64,000 nucleotides of DNA from Gemmatirosa kalamazoonensis (GTDB lineage Bacteria > Gemmatimonadota > Gemmatimonadetes > Gemmatimonadales > Gemmatimonadaceae), in the NCBI RefSeq assembly GCF_000522985.1, contig NZ_CP007129.1:372001-436000 (forward strand). The letters are read 5' to 3'. How positions within the stretch are numbered: the stretch's first letter is position 1; each line of letters begins with the position of its first letter. The notes below the pieces were generated by a model. That model did not search any database. It had not been told where the DNA came from and worked only from the letters and a program-made list of their open reading frames with translations. Made by a program: the position numbers and the translations under genes. Shown here in pieces: positions 17,733-46,691 of the stretch.

Positions 17733-19718
17733 ATGCTCTTCTCACGACGCTTCATGGCCGCCGCCGTCATCGCGGTCGCGCCGCTTGGCACCGGTGCGCA
17801 ACCCGCGCAGCCCGTGCTCGGATCACGCTCGGCGCCGATCCTCACGATCGGCGGGCTCCGCTTCCGCGACCTGAATCGCAACGGCGCGCTCGACCCGTAC
17901 GAGGACTGGCGGCTCACGCCCGCGGCGCGCGCGCGGGACCTCGTCGCCCGCATGACGCTCGAGGAGAAGGCGGGGACGATGATGCACGGCACCGCGCGCA
18001 GCGGCGGCCCAGGAGGCGCGTCCGGCGCGGGCACGGGCTACGACACCGCCGCCACGCGCGCGCTCATCGACGGCGCGAAGGTCACCAGCATGATCACGCG
18101 ACTCGGCGGCGCGCCGGCGACGCTCGCGGCGCAGAACGATCTGCTGCAGGAGATCGCCGAGTCGACGCGGTTGGGCGTGCCGCTCACCATCAGCACCGAC
18201 CCGCGGCACCACTTCCAGTACGTGCTCGGCGCGAGCGTCACCGCCGGACAGTTCTCGCAGTGGCCCGAGCCGTTGGGGCTCGCCGCGATCGGCGACTCGG
18301 CGCTCGTGCATCGGTTCGGCGACATCGCGCGGCAGGAGTACCGCGCCGTCGGGATCCACATGGCGCTGTCGCCGCAGGCCGACCTCTCCACCGAGCCACG
18401 CTGGAGCCGCATCAACGGCACGTTCGGCGAGGACGCCGCGCTCGCCGAGCGGCTCGTGCGCGCGTACGTCGAGGGGTTCCAGCACGGGGGCGCGGGCGTC
18501 GACAGCGTCGGCGTCGCCACCGTCGTGAAGCACTGGGTGGGCTACGGCGCGCAGAAGGAGGGGCTCGACAGCCACTCGTACTACGGCCGCTACGCCGAGA
18601 TGTCGCCGTCGGCGCTGGAGTACCACATCCGGCCGTTCCTCGGCGCGTTCGCCGCGCACGTCGCCGGCGTGATGCCGACGTACTCCATCCTCGAGGGCGC
18701 CGCGTGGAACGGCAAGCCGCTCGAGCAGGTGGGCGCCGGGTTCAACGCGCAGCTCCTCACCGACGCGCTGCGCGGCCGCTACGGCTTCCGCGGCCTCGTC
18801 ATCACCGACTGGGGCGTCACGAACGACTGCTCGGCGCGGTGCCGCGAGGGGGTGCCTAACGGCGAGCGGCCGTCGTTCGCCGACGTCGCGATGCCGTGGG
18901 GCGTCGAGGCGCTGCCGATGCGCGAGCGGTTCGTGAAGGCGGTGCGCGCGGGCGTCGACCAGTTCGGCGGGACCGAGCGCGCCGACGCGCTCGCGGCGGC
19001 GGTGCGCGCGGGCGAGCTGCCGGAGGCGCGCCTGGACACATCGGCGGCGCGGGTGCTGGAGCAGAAGTTCGCGTTAGGCCTGTTCGAGAACCCGTACGTG
19101 GACCCGGACGCCGCCACGCGGCGCGTCGGCACCGACGACTTCCGCGAGGCCGGGCTCGACGCGCAGCGCCACGCGCTCGTGCTGCTCGAGAACAAGCGCG
19201 GGATCCTTCCGCTGCGGCCGGACCCGCGGAGGCGGATGCTGCGCGTCTACGTGCGCGGGCTGTCGCCGGAGGTGGTGGCGCGCGAGGGATGGGAGGTGGT
19301 CCCGGATCCGGCGATGGCCGACATCGCGATCGTGCGGCTGTCGGCGCCGTTCGAGCGGCTGCACCCGGGCTACGTGTTCGGCGCGATGCAGCACGAGGGC
19401 AGCCTGGAGTTCCGTCCGGGCGACGCCGACTACGAGGCGTTCCGGCGCGCGAGCGCCGTGGTGCCGACGATCGTCACCGTGTACCTCGACCGGCCGGCGA
19501 TCCTCGAGCCGGTCAGGGTGCGCGCGCGCGCACTGCTCGCGAACTTCGGCGTGAGCGACGCCGCGCTGCTCGACGTGCTCACCGGGCGCGCGCGGCCCGA
19601 GGGCAAGCTGCCGTTCGAGCTGCCGTCGTCGATGAACGCGGTGCGCGCGCAGCGCTCGGACCTGCCGCACGACAGCGCGAAGCCGCTGTACCCGATCGGG
19701 TACGGACGCCGCTACTGA
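17733..19718 (+). CDS. Glycoside hydrolase family 3 (beta-glucosidase-like)
   Basis: 661-residue secreted GH3 enzyme. The signal peptide is MLFSRRFMAAAVIAVAPLGT, cut near GAQ. A Ca-binding-like loop (DLNRNGALDPYEDW, residues 46-59) precedes the TIM-barrel domain. The barrel has DPRHHF, VKHWVGYG and the nucleophile Asp359 in GLVITDWGV. The alpha/beta-sandwich second domain follows (ALVLLENKRGILPL) and ends GKLPFELPSS, then YPIGYGRRY. There is no fibronectin-type third domain, so it is shorter than BglX. It probably acts on plant or microbial beta-glucosides in the periplasm. Its stop overlaps the stop of the opposing kinase gene by 7 bases. Confidence 0.92.
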   Translation: MLFSRRFMAAAVIAVAPLGTGAQPAQPVLGSRSAPILTIGGLRFRDLNRNGALDPYEDWRLTPAARARDLVARMTLEEKAGTMMHGTARSGGPGGASGAGTGYDTAATRALIDGAKVTSMITRLGGAPATLAAQNDLLQEIAESTRLGVPLTISTDPRHHFQYVLGASVTAGQFSQWPEPLGLAAIGDSALVHRFGDIARQEYRAVGIHMALSPQADLSTEPRWSRINGTFGEDAALAERLVRAYVEGFQHGGAGVDSVGVATVVKHWVGYGAQKEGLDSHSYYGRYAEMSPSALEYHIRPFLGAFAAHVAGVMPTYSILEGAAWNGKPLEQVGAGFNAQLLTDALRGRYGFRGLVITDWGVTNDCSARCREGVPNGERPSFADVAMPWGVEALPMRERFVKAVRAGVDQFGGTERADALAAAVRAGELPEARLDTSAARVLEQKFALGLFENPYVDPDAATRRVGTDDFREAGLDAQRHALVLLENKRGILPLRPDPRRRMLRVYVRGLSPEVVAREGWEVVPDPAMADIAIVRLSAPFERLHPGYVFGAMQHEGSLEFRPGDADYEAFRRASAVVPTIVTVYLDRPAILEPVRVRARALLANFGVSDAALLDVLTGRARPEGKLPFELPSSMNAVRAQRSDLPHDSAKPLYPIGYGRRY

Positions 19719-21115: not shown

Positions 21116-21254
21116 GACTCGACCGGATCGGGCACCGTGGAACGACTGACCTACCATGCGCGTCCATCGGGAGTCCCGCAACGCTCGGCCGCTCCGTACC
21201 GTATCCTTTAGCTGCCGTCGATTCGTCGCGGCCCCGGATCGCCCTCCGTCGCAG

Positions 21255-23224
21255 ATGACCCGTCCCGCTCCCACGCCCGACCGCCAGCGCCTCGTGCGTC
21301 GCCTCGTCCACCGCCTGCTGCTGCTGCCGGTGGTGCTGCCGGCGGCCGCGACGGCGCTCGCCACGCCCGCGCTGGCGCAGAAGAAGCCGCCGATGGAGTT
21401 CACCCGGCAGGGGCTGCTCGTCCTGAACTTCACCCCGGGGCCGGGGGTGGACGTGAAGGTCGGCCGCAAGGCGGGCGACCGGGTGCGCGATCGGGCGGGG
21501 GACCTCGTGAACTCGCGCGAGGTGGACGTCGTCTCCGCGGCGCGAGCGCGCGAGCGGCTCGAGCGCGACGGCTTCCCGTCGGACATCGGCCTCGAGCCGG
21601 CGGTGTTCAACCAGGTGTCGCGCGCGCTCCGCGCCGACGAGTACGTGATGGGCACCGTGACCCGGCGCGGCGACGCGTACCGGATCGACGGCGAGCTGCG
21701 GCTCGTGCGCAGCGCCGGGACCAGGCAGCCGCTGGAGCCCGGCGTGAACGCCGACCTCGATCTCGCCGGCGACGTGGTCGCGAGGTCGCTCGTCGCCATG
21801 CGCGCGCAGCTCGTCCACGAGCGGCGGTGCATGAACGCGCTGCGCGAGGGGCGCGGCGCGCAGGCCCTCGACGCGGCGAAGCAGGGGATCACCGCGGTGC
21901 CGCGCGGCGCGTTCGTGCGCGCGTGCGAGGTCGGGGCGCTCATCGCCACGAGCGCGCCGGCGGCGCGCGTGCTCGCGGCCGCGGAGTCGCTGCTCGCCAT
22001 CGACTCGACGAGCCGCGAGGGGCTCGACGGGGCCGGCCGCGCGCTGAACGCGCTGCAGCGGCGCGACGCCGCGGGCACGATGTGGCTGCGGCTCGCCGCC
22101 ACCGACACGGAGAGCGTGGACCTCACGCTGCGCGCCGCCGGCGGGCTGCTGGAGGGCGGCAACGCGAAGCGCGCGCTGCCGCTGCTGAAGAAGGCGATCG
22201 AGCTGCACCCCGAGGACGTCACGCTGGTGCGCCTGGAGTGGCAGGCGGCGTTCAACGCGAAGGAATGGGCGCTCGCGGCGGAGGTCGGCGACTCGCTCCT
22301 CACGCGCGACGAGCCGTCGGCGTCGGACACGACGTTCCGGCTGCGGCACGCCGCGGCGCACCGCGCGGCGGGGCACACGCTGAAGGCGATGGAGCTGGCC
22401 GCGCGCGGCGTGCAGCAGTTCCCGAAGCACGCGCCGCTCTACGTGCTGTACACGGAGCTCGTGCAGGCCGAGCGCGACTCGGTCGTGCCGCGCGGGCTCG
22501 CCACGTTCCCGAAGAGCGCCGAGCTGCACGCGCTCGCAGCGAAGGATCTGAAGACGCGCGGCAAGGCGGAGGAGGCGCTCGCCGCCATGCAGCAGGCCGT
22601 GGCGCTCGACTCCACGCTGCCGCAGGGCGTGCTCGCGATCGCGCAGGCGGAGTTCGACCTCGGACGGCCGGACAGCGCGTTCCTGTCGCTGTCGCGCGCG
22701 CTGAAGCGCGGCGAGGACACGGCGGCGGTCGCGCAGTTCGCGCTCGCGAAAGGGAACGTGCTGCTGCGCGCCGCCGGCCAGACGCAGGTGCGCGACGACT
22801 ACGCGCGCGCGCGCTCCGCTTCTTCGCGCTCGCCGACTCGGCCCGCTCGACGCCGCAGTCGAAGTTCCTGCTCGGCACCGCGGCGCTGAACGTGTCGAAG
22901 GCCGCGCTCACCGAGGCGCCGAAGCTCACCGACAAGCCGGCGAGCTGCACGCTCGCGCGGCTCGGCGGCGAGACGCTCGCGGCGGCGCGCGCGGGGCTCG
23001 AGGCGGGACAGATGGTCGCCCCCGAAGTGGCGAAGCAGTACCTCGACTACGTGGGCCAGCTCGCGCCGTTCGCCGAGAAGCAGCTCACCGTGTACTGCGA
23101 CGGCACGCCCGCCGCGGTGGGCGGCAACGGCTCGGCCACGCCCGCGCCGCGCGACACGCTGCCGGCCGCCGCCGCCGCACCGACGCCGACCGCGACGACG
23201 ACGCCGGCGACGAAGGTGCCGTGA
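21255..23224 (+). CDS. Secreted TPR-repeat protein, frame disrupted at a CG tract
   Basis: Protein of about 655 residues with a long signal peptide ending TPALAQ, from ATG 21255. An N-terminal alpha/beta domain (FTRQGLLVLNFTPGPGVDVK onward) resembles the FlgT/TolB-N-like stress proteins. A long array of TPR-like helices follows (ALPLLKKAIELHPEDVTLVR; EEALAAMQQAVALDSTLPQG) and a Pro/Thr/Ala-rich C-terminus. Reading is open to about 22812 in one frame and continues from there to 23224 in another. The tract at 22802-22812 is (CG)5C, and removing one CG restores one frame (YARALRFFALADSAR). The stop overlaps the GTG of the next gene. It is either a sequencing error or a switchable gene. Confidence 0.75.
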
Positions 23225-24054
23225 GGCGCCGCGCGGCGCTCGCGTTAGGCGCGGCGCTCGTCGCGTCGTGCCGCGGTCCGCACCCGGCGGCACCGGTCTA
23301 CGACGTCGACGCGGTGCGCTACGCGACCATCGTCGGATTCCCGGCGCGCGCGCTCGTCGCCGGCGCCGACTCCGCGCGGCGGCAGGACATCGCGATGATG
23401 GTGTGGCTGCTCCGCGCGCCCGGACGCACGGTGCTCGTCGACGCCGGGTTCCACCGCGACAAGTTCGTGCGCCAGTGGAAGCCCGCGGACTACCGCACAC
23501 CCGCCACCGCGCTCGCCGCGCTCGGCGTCGACTCGGCCGCGGTGACCGACGTCGTGCTGTCGCACGTGCACTGGGACCACGCCGACGGGCTCGATCTCTT
23601 CCCGAACGCGCGCGTCTGGATCCAGCGTGCGGAGTACGAGTACTACGTCGCCCCCGACGGCACGCCCGCGCACCCGGGGATCGACGCCGACGACGCGGCG
23701 ATGCTGCACGCGCTGCGCGGCGCCGGGCGCGTGATGCTCGTCGACGGCGACGCGCGCGAGATCCTGCCGGGGATCGCGGTCTACACCGGCGGGCGTCACA
23801 CGTACGCGTCGCAGTACGCGACGGTGCGCACGCACGCCGGGACGGCGGTGATCGCGTCGGACAACTGCTACCTCTACGAGAACCTCGACCGCCGCCGGCC
23901 GATCGCGCAGACGTTCGACTCGCTGTCGAACCTCGCGGCGCAGGACCGCATGAAGACGCTCGCGAGCTCGGCGCGGCTCATCGTGCCGGGACACGATCCG
24001 GCGGTGTTCGCGCGATTTCCCTCGCCGGGGAACGGAGTGGCGCGGATCAGGTGA
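23221..24054 (+). CDS. Metallo-beta-lactamase-fold hydrolase, probable lipoprotein
   Basis: 277-residue MBL-fold protein. It has a short signal sequence with a lipobox (LVASC, Cys17). Zinc ligands are in VLSHVHWDHADG, His in GGRHTYASQY, Asp in IASDNCYLYE and His in LIVPGHDPAVF, so both zinc sites can form. The pattern resembles N-acyl homoserine lactonase-like (AiiA/AttM) enzymes, but the family is broad and the substrate is not certain. It starts at GTG overlapping the stop of the TPR gene, so it is co-translated with it. Probably anchored in a membrane, facing the periplasm. Confidence 0.88.
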   Translation: MRRRAALALGAALVASCRGPHPAAPVYDVDAVRYATIVGFPARALVAGADSARRQDIAMMVWLLRAPGRTVLVDAGFHRDKFVRQWKPADYRTPATALAALGVDSAAVTDVVLSHVHWDHADGLDLFPNARVWIQRAEYEYYVAPDGTPAHPGIDADDAAMLHALRGAGRVMLVDGDAREILPGIAVYTGGRHTYASQYATVRTHAGTAVIASDNCYLYENLDRRRPIAQTFDSLSNLAAQDRMKTLASSARLIVPGHDPAVFARFPSPGNGVARIR

Positions 24055-24069
24055 GGTTCGTGAGCCCAC

Positions 24070-24786
24070 TCAGCCGCCGAGCCGCTTCAGGAACTCCTCG
24101 CGGTAGCTCGGCCCCACGGTCACCCGCGTCCCGTCCGCGAGAATCAGCAGCTGCTCGCCGCGGAACCACGGCTGGATCTCGCGCACGCGCGACAGGTTGA
24201 CCACGGCCGAGCGATGCACGCGCGCGAAGCGCGACGGGTCGAGGCGCGCGGCGAGCCCGCCGAGGGTGCTGCGCATCGTGCACGTGCGCCGGCCCGCGTG
24301 CACGGCGACGTAGTTGTCGCGCGCCTCGAGCCAGTCCACCTCGTCGAGATCGAGCACCACGGTGCGCTCGCCGGCGCGCGCCACGAGGCGGCGGAGGAAC
24401 GGCTCGGCCGGTGCGAGCGCGGCGGCGCGGCGCGCGTGCACGCGCGCGACCGCCTCGGCCAGCTCGGTCGGGCTCACCGGCTTCACGAGGTAGTCCACCG
24501 CGCCGCTGCGCAGCGCGGCGATCGCGTGGGCGTCGTACGCCGTCACGAAGACGATCGGTGGCGCGTCGGCGCCGAGCGCGCTCGCGACGCCGAGGCCGTC
24601 GAGCCGCGGCATCTGCACGTCGAGGAAGAGGACGTCGGGGGCGAGCGCGCGCACGGCGCGGATCGTCTCGTCCCCCGCCGCGCACTCCCCGACGATCTCC
24701 ACGCCAGGGACTGCAGCGAGCAGGCGGCGGAGCTGCTGCCGCGCGAGCGGCTCGTCATCGGCGACGACGGCGCGGAGCGCGGTCAC
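24070..24786 (-). CDS. LytTR-family response regulator
   Basis: 238-residue regulator from GTG 24786. Receiver: VVADDEP acidic pair, phospho-acceptor Asp in VLFLDVQMPR, Lys in YLVKPVS. LytTR DNA-binding domain: VDWLEARDNYVAVHAG, FARVHRSAVVNLSRV and IQPWFRGEQLLILADGT. As the sequence stands, the reading frame runs straight in from the kinase upstream, giving one 600-residue protein. I take this as a result of one extra CG unit at 24829-24839 in the kinase gene. The next gene converges from the other side 15 bases away. Confidence 0.85.
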   Translation of the reverse strand: MTALRAVVADDEPLARQQLRRLLAAVPGVEIVGECAAGDETIRAVRALAPDVLFLDVQMPRLDGLGVASALGADAPPIVFVTAYDAHAIAALRSGAVDYLVKPVSPTELAEAVARVHARRAAALAPAEPFLRRLVARAGERTVVLDLDEVDWLEARDNYVAVHAGRRTCTMRSTLGGLAARLDPSRFARVHRSAVVNLSRVREIQPWFRGEQLLILADGTRVTVGPSYREEFLKRLGG

Positions 24787-24793
24787 GGCACTC

Positions 24794-25860
24794 TCATGTC
24801 GGATACGCGCGCGGCAGCGTGAGCACGACGCGCGCGCGCCGCGCGGCGTGTTGGGCAGGCAGGCGAGCGTGTGGTCGTCGCCGTAGAGCGAGGCGAGCCG
24901 CGCGCGCACGTTAGGCAGGCCGAGCCCGGCGCCCGCGCCCTCCGCGGCGCCGAAGCCGACGCCGTCGTCGCTCACCGAGAGCCGCAGCGCGCCGCCGGCG
25001 ACCGCCGCCTCCACGCGCACCGCGCCCTCGCCCCGCGCGCCGACGGAGTACTTGATCGCGTTCTCCACGAGCGGCTGCAGGATGAGCGGCGGCACGAGCG
25101 CGCCGCGCGCCGCCGGCTCGGCGTCGAGCGTCACGGCGAGCGTCGGGAAGCGCACGCGCTGGATCGCGACGTAGCGCTCGAGCGTCGCCAGCTCGTCGTC
25201 GAGCGTGGTGACCGTCCCCCGCAAGCCGGTGAGCGAGCGGCGCAGAAGCTCCGACAGGCTGCGCACCATGCGCGCGGCCGCCCGCGGGTCGCTCTCGATC
25301 AGCTCCACCGTGGCGTTCAGCGCGTTGAACAGGAAGTGCGGCTGGAGCTGCGCGGTGAGCAGCCCGAGCTCGGCGCGCGCACCGCGCGCGTCGGATTCGG
25401 CGCGGGCGAGCGCGTGGCGCTGCGCCTGCACCGCGGCGACGAGCGCGACGTAGACGAGCAGGTTCACCACGAACGCTCCCGCGACGCGCTCGCGGAACAC
25501 GTCGCGCAGCGCGGCCGCCGACGGCGCGTAGTAGAACAGCGGGTACACCGCCGCCACGAGCAGGCTGTGCGCGACGCTCACCGCCGCGCCGGCCGCGGCG
25601 TGCACCGTCAGGCCGCGGGCGAGCGCGCCGCGACGCAGCGGGACGCGCCGCGCCAGCTGCACGACGATCGGCGCGAGCGCGGCCCACGCGAGCCAGCTCA
25701 CCGTCTGCCGCAGGAGCAGCGAGCGCCAGCCGCGCGTGCCGCCGTACCACCGCACGGCGAACAGCTCGTGCGCGGTGAACAGCGCGACGACGAGCGTCCA
25801 TGCGGCGGCCCACGCGAGCGCGCGGCGGCGCGCCGACGGCGCGGGAAGGAGTGACGTCAT
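24794..25860 (-). CDS. LytS/YehU-type sensor histidine kinase, frame disrupted near its end
   Basis: Membrane kinase of about 355 residues starting MTSLLPAPSARRRAL. Four or five hydrophobic segments (residues about 20-140) are followed by a coiled-coil and His in TAQLQPHFLFNALNA, then PLVENAIKYSV and GLGLPNVRARLASLYG ATPase boxes. The sister kinase ends soon after this point. Here the literal frame goes through a (CG)5C tract (24829-24839) and continues into the regulator. Removing one CG gives GARVVLTLPRAYPT and a stop at 24796-24794, 7 bases before the regulator GTG. That matches normal kinase length, so the fused reading is probably not real. Divergent from the YceI-like gene across 136 bp. 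Confidence 0.8.
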
Positions 25861-25996
25861 CGCGGCTAGCGTACGTGTCGCCACCGCCGACGGCAAGCAT
25901 CGCGCGCTCGCCCCACGACGCGCGCCTTCGCCCCTGCACGTGCGCCCTTCGCCCCCGCGCCGTGGCGCCGCCGCGCGCCGTGCCTACCGTGGCCGC

Positions 25997-27000
25997 ATGC
26001 GCACCACACTCCGAGTACTGGCCGCGCTCCTCGTCGCGCCGCCGCTCGACGCGCGGCTCGACGCGCAGAGCGACCTACCCGCGCGCTACGGCATCGACGC
26101 CGCGCACTCCAGCGTCGGCTTCTCGATCGGGTTCATGGGGATGTCCACCGTGCACGGCGCGTTCACGTCGTACGACGGGACGATCCTGTACGACGAGCGC
26201 GACCCGACACGCTCGTCAGTGAGCGTCGCGATCGACGTGGCGAGCATCAGCACGAACTCGCGCGATCGCGACCGGCACCTGCGCAGCCCCGACTTCTTCG
26301 ACGCCGCGCGCTACCCCCGCATCACGTTCCGCTCCACGAGCGTCGCGCGCGCGCGCCGCGCGGCTTCGTGCTGCGCGGCGTGCTCGCGATGCACGGCCAG
26401 CGCCGCGAGGTCGAGATCCCGTTCGAGCGGCTGAACGGTCCGATGCCCGACGCGTGGGGGAATCGACGCATGACGCTGCGCGGCACGCTCTCGGTGAGCC
26501 GCAAGGCGTGGGGGATCGAGGGCACGGCGTTCTGGAACTCGGAGTTCGATCCCGGCCGCATGGCGGTGAGCGACCGCGCCGACATCGAGCTGCTCGTCTC
26601 GGCCACGATCCCGAATGTCGACCGGTGGGCGCATCCGGTCGGCGACTCGCTCCTCGCGAGCGTCGAGCGCGACGGGGTGAACGAGGCCACCCGCCGCTTC
26701 CGCGCGGCGTATGCGGGCAGCACGCGCGCCGACTCGATCCCGGAGTTCGCGTTCGTCGACGCGGGGCAGAAGCTCGTCGCGCGCGGCCGCGCGGCGGACG
26801 CGATCGCGTTCTACCGCGCCGTGCTCGACGTGCGCCCCACGGCGACGACGACGCGCTTCCTGCTCGGCGAGGCATACCTCAGGTCGGGGCAGACCGCGGC
26901 GGCGCGCGAGGAGTTCGCGCGCGTGGTGCGCGAGGATCCGGATGCGACCGGGGCGGCGGAGTGGCTGCGCGTGCTCGACGAGCGAGCGGGCAGCGGCTAG
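25997..27000 (+). CDS. YceI-like domain protein with C-terminal TPR region, frame disrupted at a CG tract
   Basis: Signal peptide at 1-25, then a YceI-like lipocalin-fold domain: YGIDAAHSSVGFSIGFMGMS, DVASISTNSRDRDRHLRSPD, FFDAARYPRITFRSTSV. The frame breaks in a (CG)6C tract at 26344-26356. Removing one CG joins it to APRGFVLRGVLAMHGQRRE, the expected next YceI strand, and the gene runs to 27000. The C-terminal third carries a TPR-like pair (AIAFYRAVLDVRPTATTTRF; AAAREEFARVVREDP). YceI proteins are usually about 190 residues; this would be about 334. Family knowledge: YceI binds isoprenoid-type lipids in the periplasm. The TPR tail suggests a partner-binding function. Confidence 0.75.
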
Positions 27001-44890: not shown

Positions 44891-46691
44891 ACAACGCCAC
44901 GCGGCACGTCCTGTCGTTCGTGCACGCGCGCGGCGGCCGAGGGCGCGTCCATCCTGTCCGCCGGCAGCTCGACGACGAACGTGGCGCCGGCGCGGCCATC
45001 GTCGTCGGCGACCCACGCGCGTCCGCCATGCTGCGACACGACGTCGTGCACGATTGCGAGCCCGATGCCGCTTCCCGACGTGTGCCCCGCCGTGCGGCCG
45101 CGCTGGTACGGACGCCAGATCGCCTGCCGGTCGGCGGCGGGCACGCCGGGGCCCTCGTCGTGCACCTCGAGTCGCACCCGGTCGCCCGTCGATCGCACGC
45201 GCACGTGCACCGTCTGGCCGGTGGGGCCGTACTTCACCGCGTTGTCGAGGAGGTTGAGCAGCACGTGGCGGAGCGCGCCCTCCTGCAGGCGCAGCGTGGG
45301 CGTCGGCTCGGCGTCGCACGTCACCGTCGCGCGCCGCGCCGCGGCGAGCGGACGGAACTCGTCGACGATGCGCGCCGTCTCCGCGGACACGTCCTCCGGC
45401 GCGCGCGACACGTCGCCGCCGAGCCGACGGCCGACGCCGGAGAAGCGGAGCACGCGCTCCACGAGGTGGCCCAGGCGCGTCGTCTCGCGCTCCACGTTGT
45501 CGAGCGACCAGCGGCGCTGCTCCTCGGTGGTGAAGCGGCCGAGGCGCAGCGTCTCGAGGTAGACGCGCATCTGCGCGAGCGGCGTGCGCAGCTCGTGCGA
45601 GATGGAGCTCACGAAGTCGGCCCGCATGCGCGCGAGCTCGCCCTCGCGGCGGATCTGCCCGAGCGCGACGAGCGCGAGCGCCGCGGACAGGCCGAGGATG
45701 CCTAACAGGAACGGGAGGCGCGACTTCGGCAGGCCGCCGATGACGAGCGTGCCCGCGAGCTCGGGGCGGATCTGCGCGCGCACGAGCACCGAACCGTAGG
45801 TCTTCGGCAGCCGCGTCGTGTCGTCGAGCGTCCATCGCCCGGACCCCGGGTCGGAGTCGAACAGCGGCGTGCCGTGCGCGTCGCTCACCTGGAGACGCAA
45901 CACCTCGCGCGGCCGGCGCCCGCGCGCGAACGTCTCGGGGAGCAGCGCGCGCTCGTTCATCACCTCGCGGAACAGCGCCTCGAGCGACGACCGCGGGTAC
46001 TCGGCGCCGTACACCAGCGTGTCGCCCCACGACGTCGGCATGACGGTGTACACGAGCAGCCGCGGCACGCCGTCGTACGAAGCGAGCACGACCGGGAAGT
46101 AGCCGAGCCGTCCGGCGCCGCGCACCTGGCGCGAGATCGTGTCGTTGATCCACCGCCGCTCGCCGGCCGTGTAATCGACGAGGCGCCCATGCATCATGTG
46201 GTCGGCCATCATGTGGCCCATCATGCGCGGCGAGTGCGCGACGAACTCCTGCGGCAGCGGGCGGTCCACCTCCCATCCCTCGGTCGGATCGGGGTGCGTG
46301 TTCACGCCGAGTCCGAGCGTGTCGCTGCCGAGCTGCCAGCCGAAGAAGATGAGCGGGCTGCCGCCGTAGCGCGGGCGGTGGCAGTAGCAGCGCGGGTCCC
46401 ATGGCAGGTAGTGCGCGAGGTCCGCCGCGGGGGGATGCGGTGGCTCGTGTGCACGCCCTCGCCGTGGTTCACCGCGCCGAGCGCCTCGCTCGTCGCGCGG
46501 CCGATCGCGTCCTGCACGTGCTGCGCGTAGCTCCACGCCGCGAACCCCGCGTAGTCGCGGAGCGCGTGCTCGGCGACCTCGCGCTGCCGCCGCACGGCGC
46601 GCGTCGCCTCGAGCAGGCCGAGCGCGGTGAGGCCGATGCTCGCGAGCAGCAGCAGCGTCGGCCAGCGGACGGCGGGGAGGCGGGGGGGCAT
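44881..46691 (-). CDS. Sensor histidine kinase with Met/His-rich periplasmic domain, frame disrupted at G6
   Basis: Kinase of about 600 residues. Helix one is at residues 11-27 (PTLLLLASIGLTALGLL). A periplasmic domain follows with CYCHRP (102-107) and a cluster HSPRMMGHMMADHMMHG (about 153-169), both typical of copper sites. Helix two is near LPFLLGILGLSAALALVALG, then HisKA (His in SSISHELRTPLAQM) and HATPase (LLDNAVKYGP; GSGIGLAIVHDVV). The N-terminal 88 residues and the rest are in different frames. The break is at a G6 run on the + strand (46429-46434), and one extra base restores the frame. The gene stops inside repeat D. The divergent gene is a multicopper oxidase, which supports copper sensing. 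Confidence 0.78.

What the first reader, a model, noticed from the sequence alone, without database searches (positions are those of the whole stretch)
22802..26356. Three gene disruptions all show one CG unit too many in a (CG)5-6 tract
The TPR gene (22802-22812), the LytS kinase gene (24829-24839) and the YceI-TPR gene (26344-26356) each change frame exactly at a (CG)nC tract. In each, removing a single CG restores a sensible protein. Same tract type, same direction and same size in three genes within 4 kb is not random decay. It is either a systematic consensus error or slippage-based switching. Other tracts of equal length, for example at 19510-19521 in the GH3 gene, are intact.
Basis: seen in the sequence. 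Interest (0 to 1): 0.65.

Follow-up and report, generated by a model that had tools for sequence, protein, structure and literature searches.

The report
Extra CG units from assembly errors
Three neighbouring genes look broken because the published genome sequence most likely carries one CG pair too many in each of three CG-repeat tracts, a sequencing error found all over this genome rather than a genetic switch.

Summary
A TPR gene (tract 22802-22814), a LytS-type kinase gene (24829-24839) and a YceI-TPR gene (26344-26356) each change frame at a (CG)5-6C tract, each by one surplus CG. In the nearest relative the TPR tract is 11 nt instead of 13, and the protein around it is the same. Contig sizes identify the genome as Gemmatirosa kalamazoonensis KBS708, assembled from PacBio RS reads alone with HGAP and Quiver.

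The surplus is not local. In about 1.41 Mb of this genome, 45 of 124 callable CG tracts of 12 nt or more shift the reading frame by +2 and 3 by +1; the rate is about 2% at 4-10 nt. In three relatives of the same family it is 0 of 63. Broken genes lie on all three large replicons and include hisC inside an otherwise intact his operon. mutS and mutL are intact; CG tracts are not over-represented.

Best reading: a systematic +CG consensus error that depends on tract length, roughly 120 cases genome-wide. Slippage-based switching is unlikely. Raw reads were not available, so the error is inferred, not shown.

The parts
21255..22801 (+). TPR protein gene, part before the tract (start at 21255 is my reading; ORF 21156-22889)
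   Evidence: Pfam TPR_14; 65% identical over 100 aa to L002
22802..22814 (+). 13-nt (CG)6C tract, one CG more than the 11-nt tract of the G015 orthologue
   Evidence: frame shift of class d2
22815..23224 (+). TPR protein gene, part after the tract, in the shifted frame
   Evidence: 62% identical over 100 aa to L002, same frame there as the first part
24840..25860 (-). LytS-type histidine kinase gene, part before the tract (start at 25860 is my reading; ORF 24070-25896)
   Evidence: Pfam His_kinase and HATPase_c
24829..24839 (-). 11-nt CG tract near the kinase 3' end; as printed it fuses the kinase in frame to the response regulator
   Evidence: frame test 'unclear' at this tract because the gene ends just after it
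24070..24786 (-). LytTR response regulator gene (start at 24786 is my reading)
   Evidence: Pfam Response_reg and LytTR
25997..26343 (+). YceI-TPR gene, part before the tract (start at 25997 is my reading)
   Evidence: Pfam YceI profile positions 1-85 of 150
26344..26356 (+). 13-nt (CG)6C tract with one CG too many
   Evidence: frame shift of class d2
26357..27000 (+). YceI-TPR gene, part after the tract, in the shifted frame
   Evidence: Pfam YceI profile positions 90-148 of 150, then TPR
19520..19531 (+). 12-nt CG tract in the GH3 gene, frame intact (internal control)

Best explanation
The three 'broken' genes are most likely intact in the living cell. The deposited sequence carries a systematic consensus error: long alternating CG tracts (true length about 9-12 nt) sometimes gained one CG unit during PacBio-only assembly (HGAP, then Quiver). 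Inferred mechanism: insertion-prone raw reads gave a draft with one unit too many; Quiver then improved the consensus by single-base edits and could not remove it, because losing only C or only G makes the fit worse before the second loss makes it better. That polishing limit is recalled from the documentation of PacBio's GenomicConsensus software; no call shows it. Shown here: the surplus CG, its genome-wide spread, its one direction, its dependence on tract length, its absence in three relatives, and the assembly method. Inferred: that reads would show the shorter tracts.
For: Genome identity and method: G000 has 7,479,215 bases in 4 contigs of 5,311,527, 1,106,233, 1,040,503 and 20,952. The KBS708 paper, read whole, reports 5,312, 1,106, 1,041 and 21 kb from PacBio RS data only, HGAP plus Quiver. 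Frame test in 128 own stretches (1,405,685 bases): +2 shift at 5 of 18 callable 12-nt tracts, 31 of 76 at 13 nt, 9 of 30 at 14 nt or more, against 5 of 107 at 11 nt, 14 of 587 at 9-10 nt and 721 of 37,414 at 4-8 nt; +1 shift at 3 of 124 tracts of 12 nt or more. Relatives G030, G014 and G015: 0 of 63 callable tracts of 12 nt or more; Fisher p = 6.6e-10. Spread: 37 on the chromosome, 5 and 3 on the two large plasmids. hisC is cut at a 14-nt tract between intact hisD and hisH, with hisB nearby, and no other stretch of the genome scores as well for hisC. TPR orthologue: 11 nt against 13, same protein around it. mutS and mutL are in single open frames, so a mismatch-repair mutator is not indicated. 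A kinase gene in the window is also shifted at a G6 run (46429-46434), an ordinary indel-error context.
Against: No raw read or second assembly of the strain was available. None of the broken genes looked at is strictly essential for life in rich medium; hisC is conditional. In-vivo slippage would also rise with tract length. Two 13-nt tracts and one 18-nt tract shift by +1, which may be gene boundaries, two surplus units or a lost unit; not resolved. The callable set leaves out 42 of 166 own tracts of 12 nt or more as unclear. I found no paper that documents this error type (listings).
Confidence: 0.88

Rival explanations
1. Slippage-based switching: CG tracts act as reversible on/off switches of the three genes (phase variation), and the sequenced culture happened to be in the off state.
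For: CG repeats can slip in principle; tract-length dependence fits slippage; the LytS tract would toggle between a separate kinase and a kinase-regulator fusion.
Against: About 120 loci genome-wide would be in the same +1-unit state at once; direction is 45 to 3; CG tracts are rarer than in shuffles (91 against 169 expected); genes hit are of mixed kinds, hisC included; no shift in 63 tracts of relatives.
Confidence: 0.05
2. Fixed mutations: the strain has really gained CG units in many genes, for example after a spell without mismatch repair, and the genes are true pseudogenes.
For: The genome sequence as deposited; no other damage is needed to explain the three genes.
Against: mutS and mutL in single open frames; almost no contractions; a his operon with one broken gene; strong coding signal persists on both sides of the tracts.
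Confidence: 0.05
3. Recoding: ribosomes or RNA polymerase slip by two bases on alternating CG and restore the frame, so the surplus CG is tolerated.
For: Re-pairing after a 2-nt slip is possible on an alternating repeat (reasoning, no call).
Against: Relatives with equal tracts keep the frame in 63 of 63 callable cases; 76 of 124 own callable tracts of 12 nt or more are read straight through.
Confidence: 0.02

Closest known systems
Systematic indel errors in long-read-only bacterial assemblies
   Same: Frameshifts at simple repeats, repeated in many genes, absent from relatives; long-read-only consensus.
   Different: Here the unit is a CG pair gained in alternating CG tracts, not mainly a homopolymer loss; I found no paper that describes this form (listings).
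Phase-variable simple-repeat (contingency) loci, such as coding CT repeats of Helicobacter pylori outer-membrane genes (recalled)
   Same: Dinucleotide repeat inside a coding frame; one unit toggles the frame.
   Different: No enrichment of tracts, nearly one direction only, mixed gene classes, no sign in relatives.

Membership tests
Long-read consensus error | Assembly made from long reads only | tested here: met
   KBS708 paper: PacBio RS, HGAP, Quiver; contig sizes match
Long-read consensus error | Many unrelated genes hit in the same sequence context | tested here: met
   45 of 124 callable tracts of 12 nt or more, three replicons
Long-read consensus error | Absent at equal tracts in relatives | tested here: met
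   0 of 63 in G030, G014, G015; their sequencing methods are not known
Long-read consensus error | Reads or another technology disagree with the consensus | not testable with these tools
   No reads and no second assembly of the strain held
Phase-variable contingency locus | Repeat tracts kept longer or more frequent than expected | tested here: not met
   91 matches of the 9-nt pattern against 169 expected in shuffles
Phase-variable contingency locus | Both gains and losses of units seen | tested here: not met
   45 shifts of +2 and 3 of +1 at 12 nt or more
Phase-variable contingency locus | Concentrated in surface or variable-trait genes | tested here: inconclusive
   Mixed list; hisC among them; no enrichment test done
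Phase-variable contingency locus | Mixed tract lengths in a clonal population | not testable with these tools
   Needs reads or amplicons

The most novel reading that the evidence does not exclude
A genome-wide CG-dinucleotide slippage switch in Gemmatirosa: about a hundred genes, including a kinase that toggles between a free form and a kinase-regulator fusion, vary by one CG unit within the population.
Probability: 0.05. Interest if true: 0.7.

Novelty: not a real feature. Interest (0 to 1): 0.2.

Why it matters
If right, roughly 120 genes of a genome that stands for a rarely cultured phylum are wrongly split or fused, and studies that infer lost pathways, pseudogenes or a fused LytS-LytTR regulator from it would be misled. 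It also gives a simple screen, the frame test at CG tracts, for other high-G+C long-read-only genomes of that era.

Tried and rejected
Local cluster as something special: rejected, because pairs of 13-nt tracts within 3.5 kb occur seven times (the window's own pair included) among the 94 listed on C2 and C3, and a triple of broken tracts is not very unlikely.

First version of the frame test needed clear coding on each side separately; it left many tracts unclear, and it called the LytS tract 'same', because the fused regulator frame follows. The joint test replaced it; it calls that tract unclear, so LytS rests on homology alone.

Homopolymers and other dinucleotide repeats as a contrast: too few callable cases. 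For runs of 7 or more, 8 same and 2 shifted; for other dinucleotide repeats of 9 nt, 1 same and 1 shifted. No conclusion. Essential-gene test: no strictly essential gene among those looked at; hisC is the best case.

Dropped rows: G019 (8 tracts, all unclear) and six of seven early G015 loci were left out, which used 30 new G015 loci plus one early one. Duplicate tracts were counted once. Own regions were partly chosen because they hold 13-nt or longer tracts; the unbiased set is the window plus L078-L097. The scan for other frame changes in the window stopped on a script error after the 46428 entry and was not repeated. No plasmid record matched the window's stretch. Genes called mutM or IlvD-like in my reading are named by eye, not by a search.

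Full report
What was checked. The window is G000:C3:372001-436000. The three tracts are real: 22802-22814 (13 nt), 24829-24839 (11 nt), 26344-26356 (13 nt). They are three of the eight CG tracts of 11 nt or more in the window, and the two 13-nt tracts are the longest. The three-frame translations show the coding frame jump at each.

Each gene. In the TPR gene the parts before and after the tract match L002 (from G015) at 65% and 62% over 100 aa each, in one frame there, with 12 nt between them against 14 here; L018 shows 15 against 17. The L002 site reads GACTA, an 11-nt CG tract, then TGCGCTTCTTC, against GACTA, 13 nt, TCCGCTTCTTC here; with one CG fewer the two would code for the same residues around the site (DYARALRFF, my reading). 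In the YceI gene the Pfam profile is split at the tract, positions 1-85 and 90-148; L033 and L026 have 24 nt where the window has 26, and L032 has 36 against 35 with the same frame offset. L033 and L026 have no long CG tract there. In the LytS gene the printed tract fuses the kinase to the LytTR regulator as a 608-aa ORF with His_kinase, HATPase_c, Response_reg and LytTR domains. The alternative frame ends in VVLTLPRAYPT-stop, the shape seen in relatives such as VEVELPYRT-stop (L012) and VTLRLPLTPAP-stop (L014); of 16 loci printed, 13 have a stop within the printed stretch after this motif and 3 read on.

Which genome. The contigs are 5,311,527, 1,106,233, 1,040,503 and 20,952 bases. The genome announcement of Gemmatirosa kalamazoonensis KBS708 (PMC3974934, whole text read) gives 5,312, 1,106, 1,041 and 21 kb. 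Its data were PacBio RS reads, assembled by HGAP and polished with Quiver; no short reads are mentioned. The identification rests on these sizes; the genome itself is unnamed in the tools. That paper reports only N6-methyladenine motifs, none of them a CG-repeat motif.

Genome-wide test. I used 128 stretches of this genome (1,405,685 bases): the window, 57 stretches chosen because they hold 13-nt or longer tracts or by even spacing, and 70 around 13-nt tracts. A codon model was trained on long ORFs, and the coding frame was compared over 150 nt on each side of each alternating CG tract. A shift of +2 is what one surplus CG gives. Result: 4-8 nt 721 of 37,414 callable (1.9%, the level of gene overlaps; random positions give 394 of 13,883); 9-10 nt 14 of 587; 11 nt 5 of 107; 12 nt 5 of 18; 13 nt 31 of 76; 14 nt or more 9 of 30. 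For 12 nt or more: 45 of 124 are +2, 3 are +1, 76 are intact, and 42 further tracts were unclear. By replicon the +2 cases number 37, 5 and 3 on C2, C3 and C4. Controls of the same family: G030 0 of 24, G014 0 of 13, G015 0 of 26, in all 0 of 63 with 35 unclear; Fisher p = 6.6e-10. The sequencing methods of the controls are unknown, and G014's codon model was trained on only 7 ORFs.

Scale. There are 111 tracts of exactly 13 nt in the genome. Scaling the unbiased tract spectrum gives a rough 0.8%, 3.3% and 5.5% of true 9-, 10- and 11-nt tracts with one unit too many, and about 120 cases in all. These are extrapolations.

Error or biology. (1) Direction is 45 to 3; slippage in cells would be expected to lose units too. 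(2) hisC is cut at a 14-nt tract (C2:1440244-1440257) between a good hisD and hisH, with hisB nearby; the first part fits hisC positions 30-254 of 349 and the second part fits the ends of related aminotransferase models. No other place scores as high for hisC, though nine weaker hits exist. (3) mutS is one open frame over positions 2-839 of 840, and mutL is in one open frame. (4) CG tracts are rarer than in shuffled sequence. (5) A kinase gene in the window is also shifted at a G6 run. Taken together these favour a consensus error. The polishing trap at dinucleotide repeats is recalled from PacBio software documentation; five literature searches did not turn up a paper that states it, judged from their listings. 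PMC10228379 and PMC5694780 were searched for terms only and add nothing on this.

Against. No reads. No strictly essential gene was found broken. Length dependence fits both error and slippage. The LytS tract is outside the range where the excess is strong (11 nt: 5 of 107) and rests on homology. Three +1 shifts are unexplained.

Verdict. It is probably not a switch, and it is not special to these three genes.

Noticed in passing
window 46429-46434: A histidine kinase gene on the minus strand changes frame at a run of six G; looks like a one-base indel, probably another consensus error.
   Followed up: partly
L242:2756-5480 (G000:C2, near 1440244): hisD-hisC-hisH operon, hisB further on, in which only hisC is cut, at a 14-nt CG tract.
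   Followed up: yes
L096:19610-19621: A gene that looks by eye like mutM is shifted at a 12-nt CG tract.
   Followed up: no
L077:5270-5282: A gene that looks by eye like an IlvD/Edd dehydratase is shifted at a 13-nt CG tract.
   Followed up: no
L207:805-822, L219:3016-3028, L077:11928-11940: Three tracts with a +1 frame shift: two surplus units, one lost unit or gene boundaries; not resolved.
   Followed up: no
G000 genome-wide sample: Tract counts fall unevenly with length: 47 of 11 nt but only 10 of 12 nt in the unbiased sample of 464 kb.
   Followed up: no
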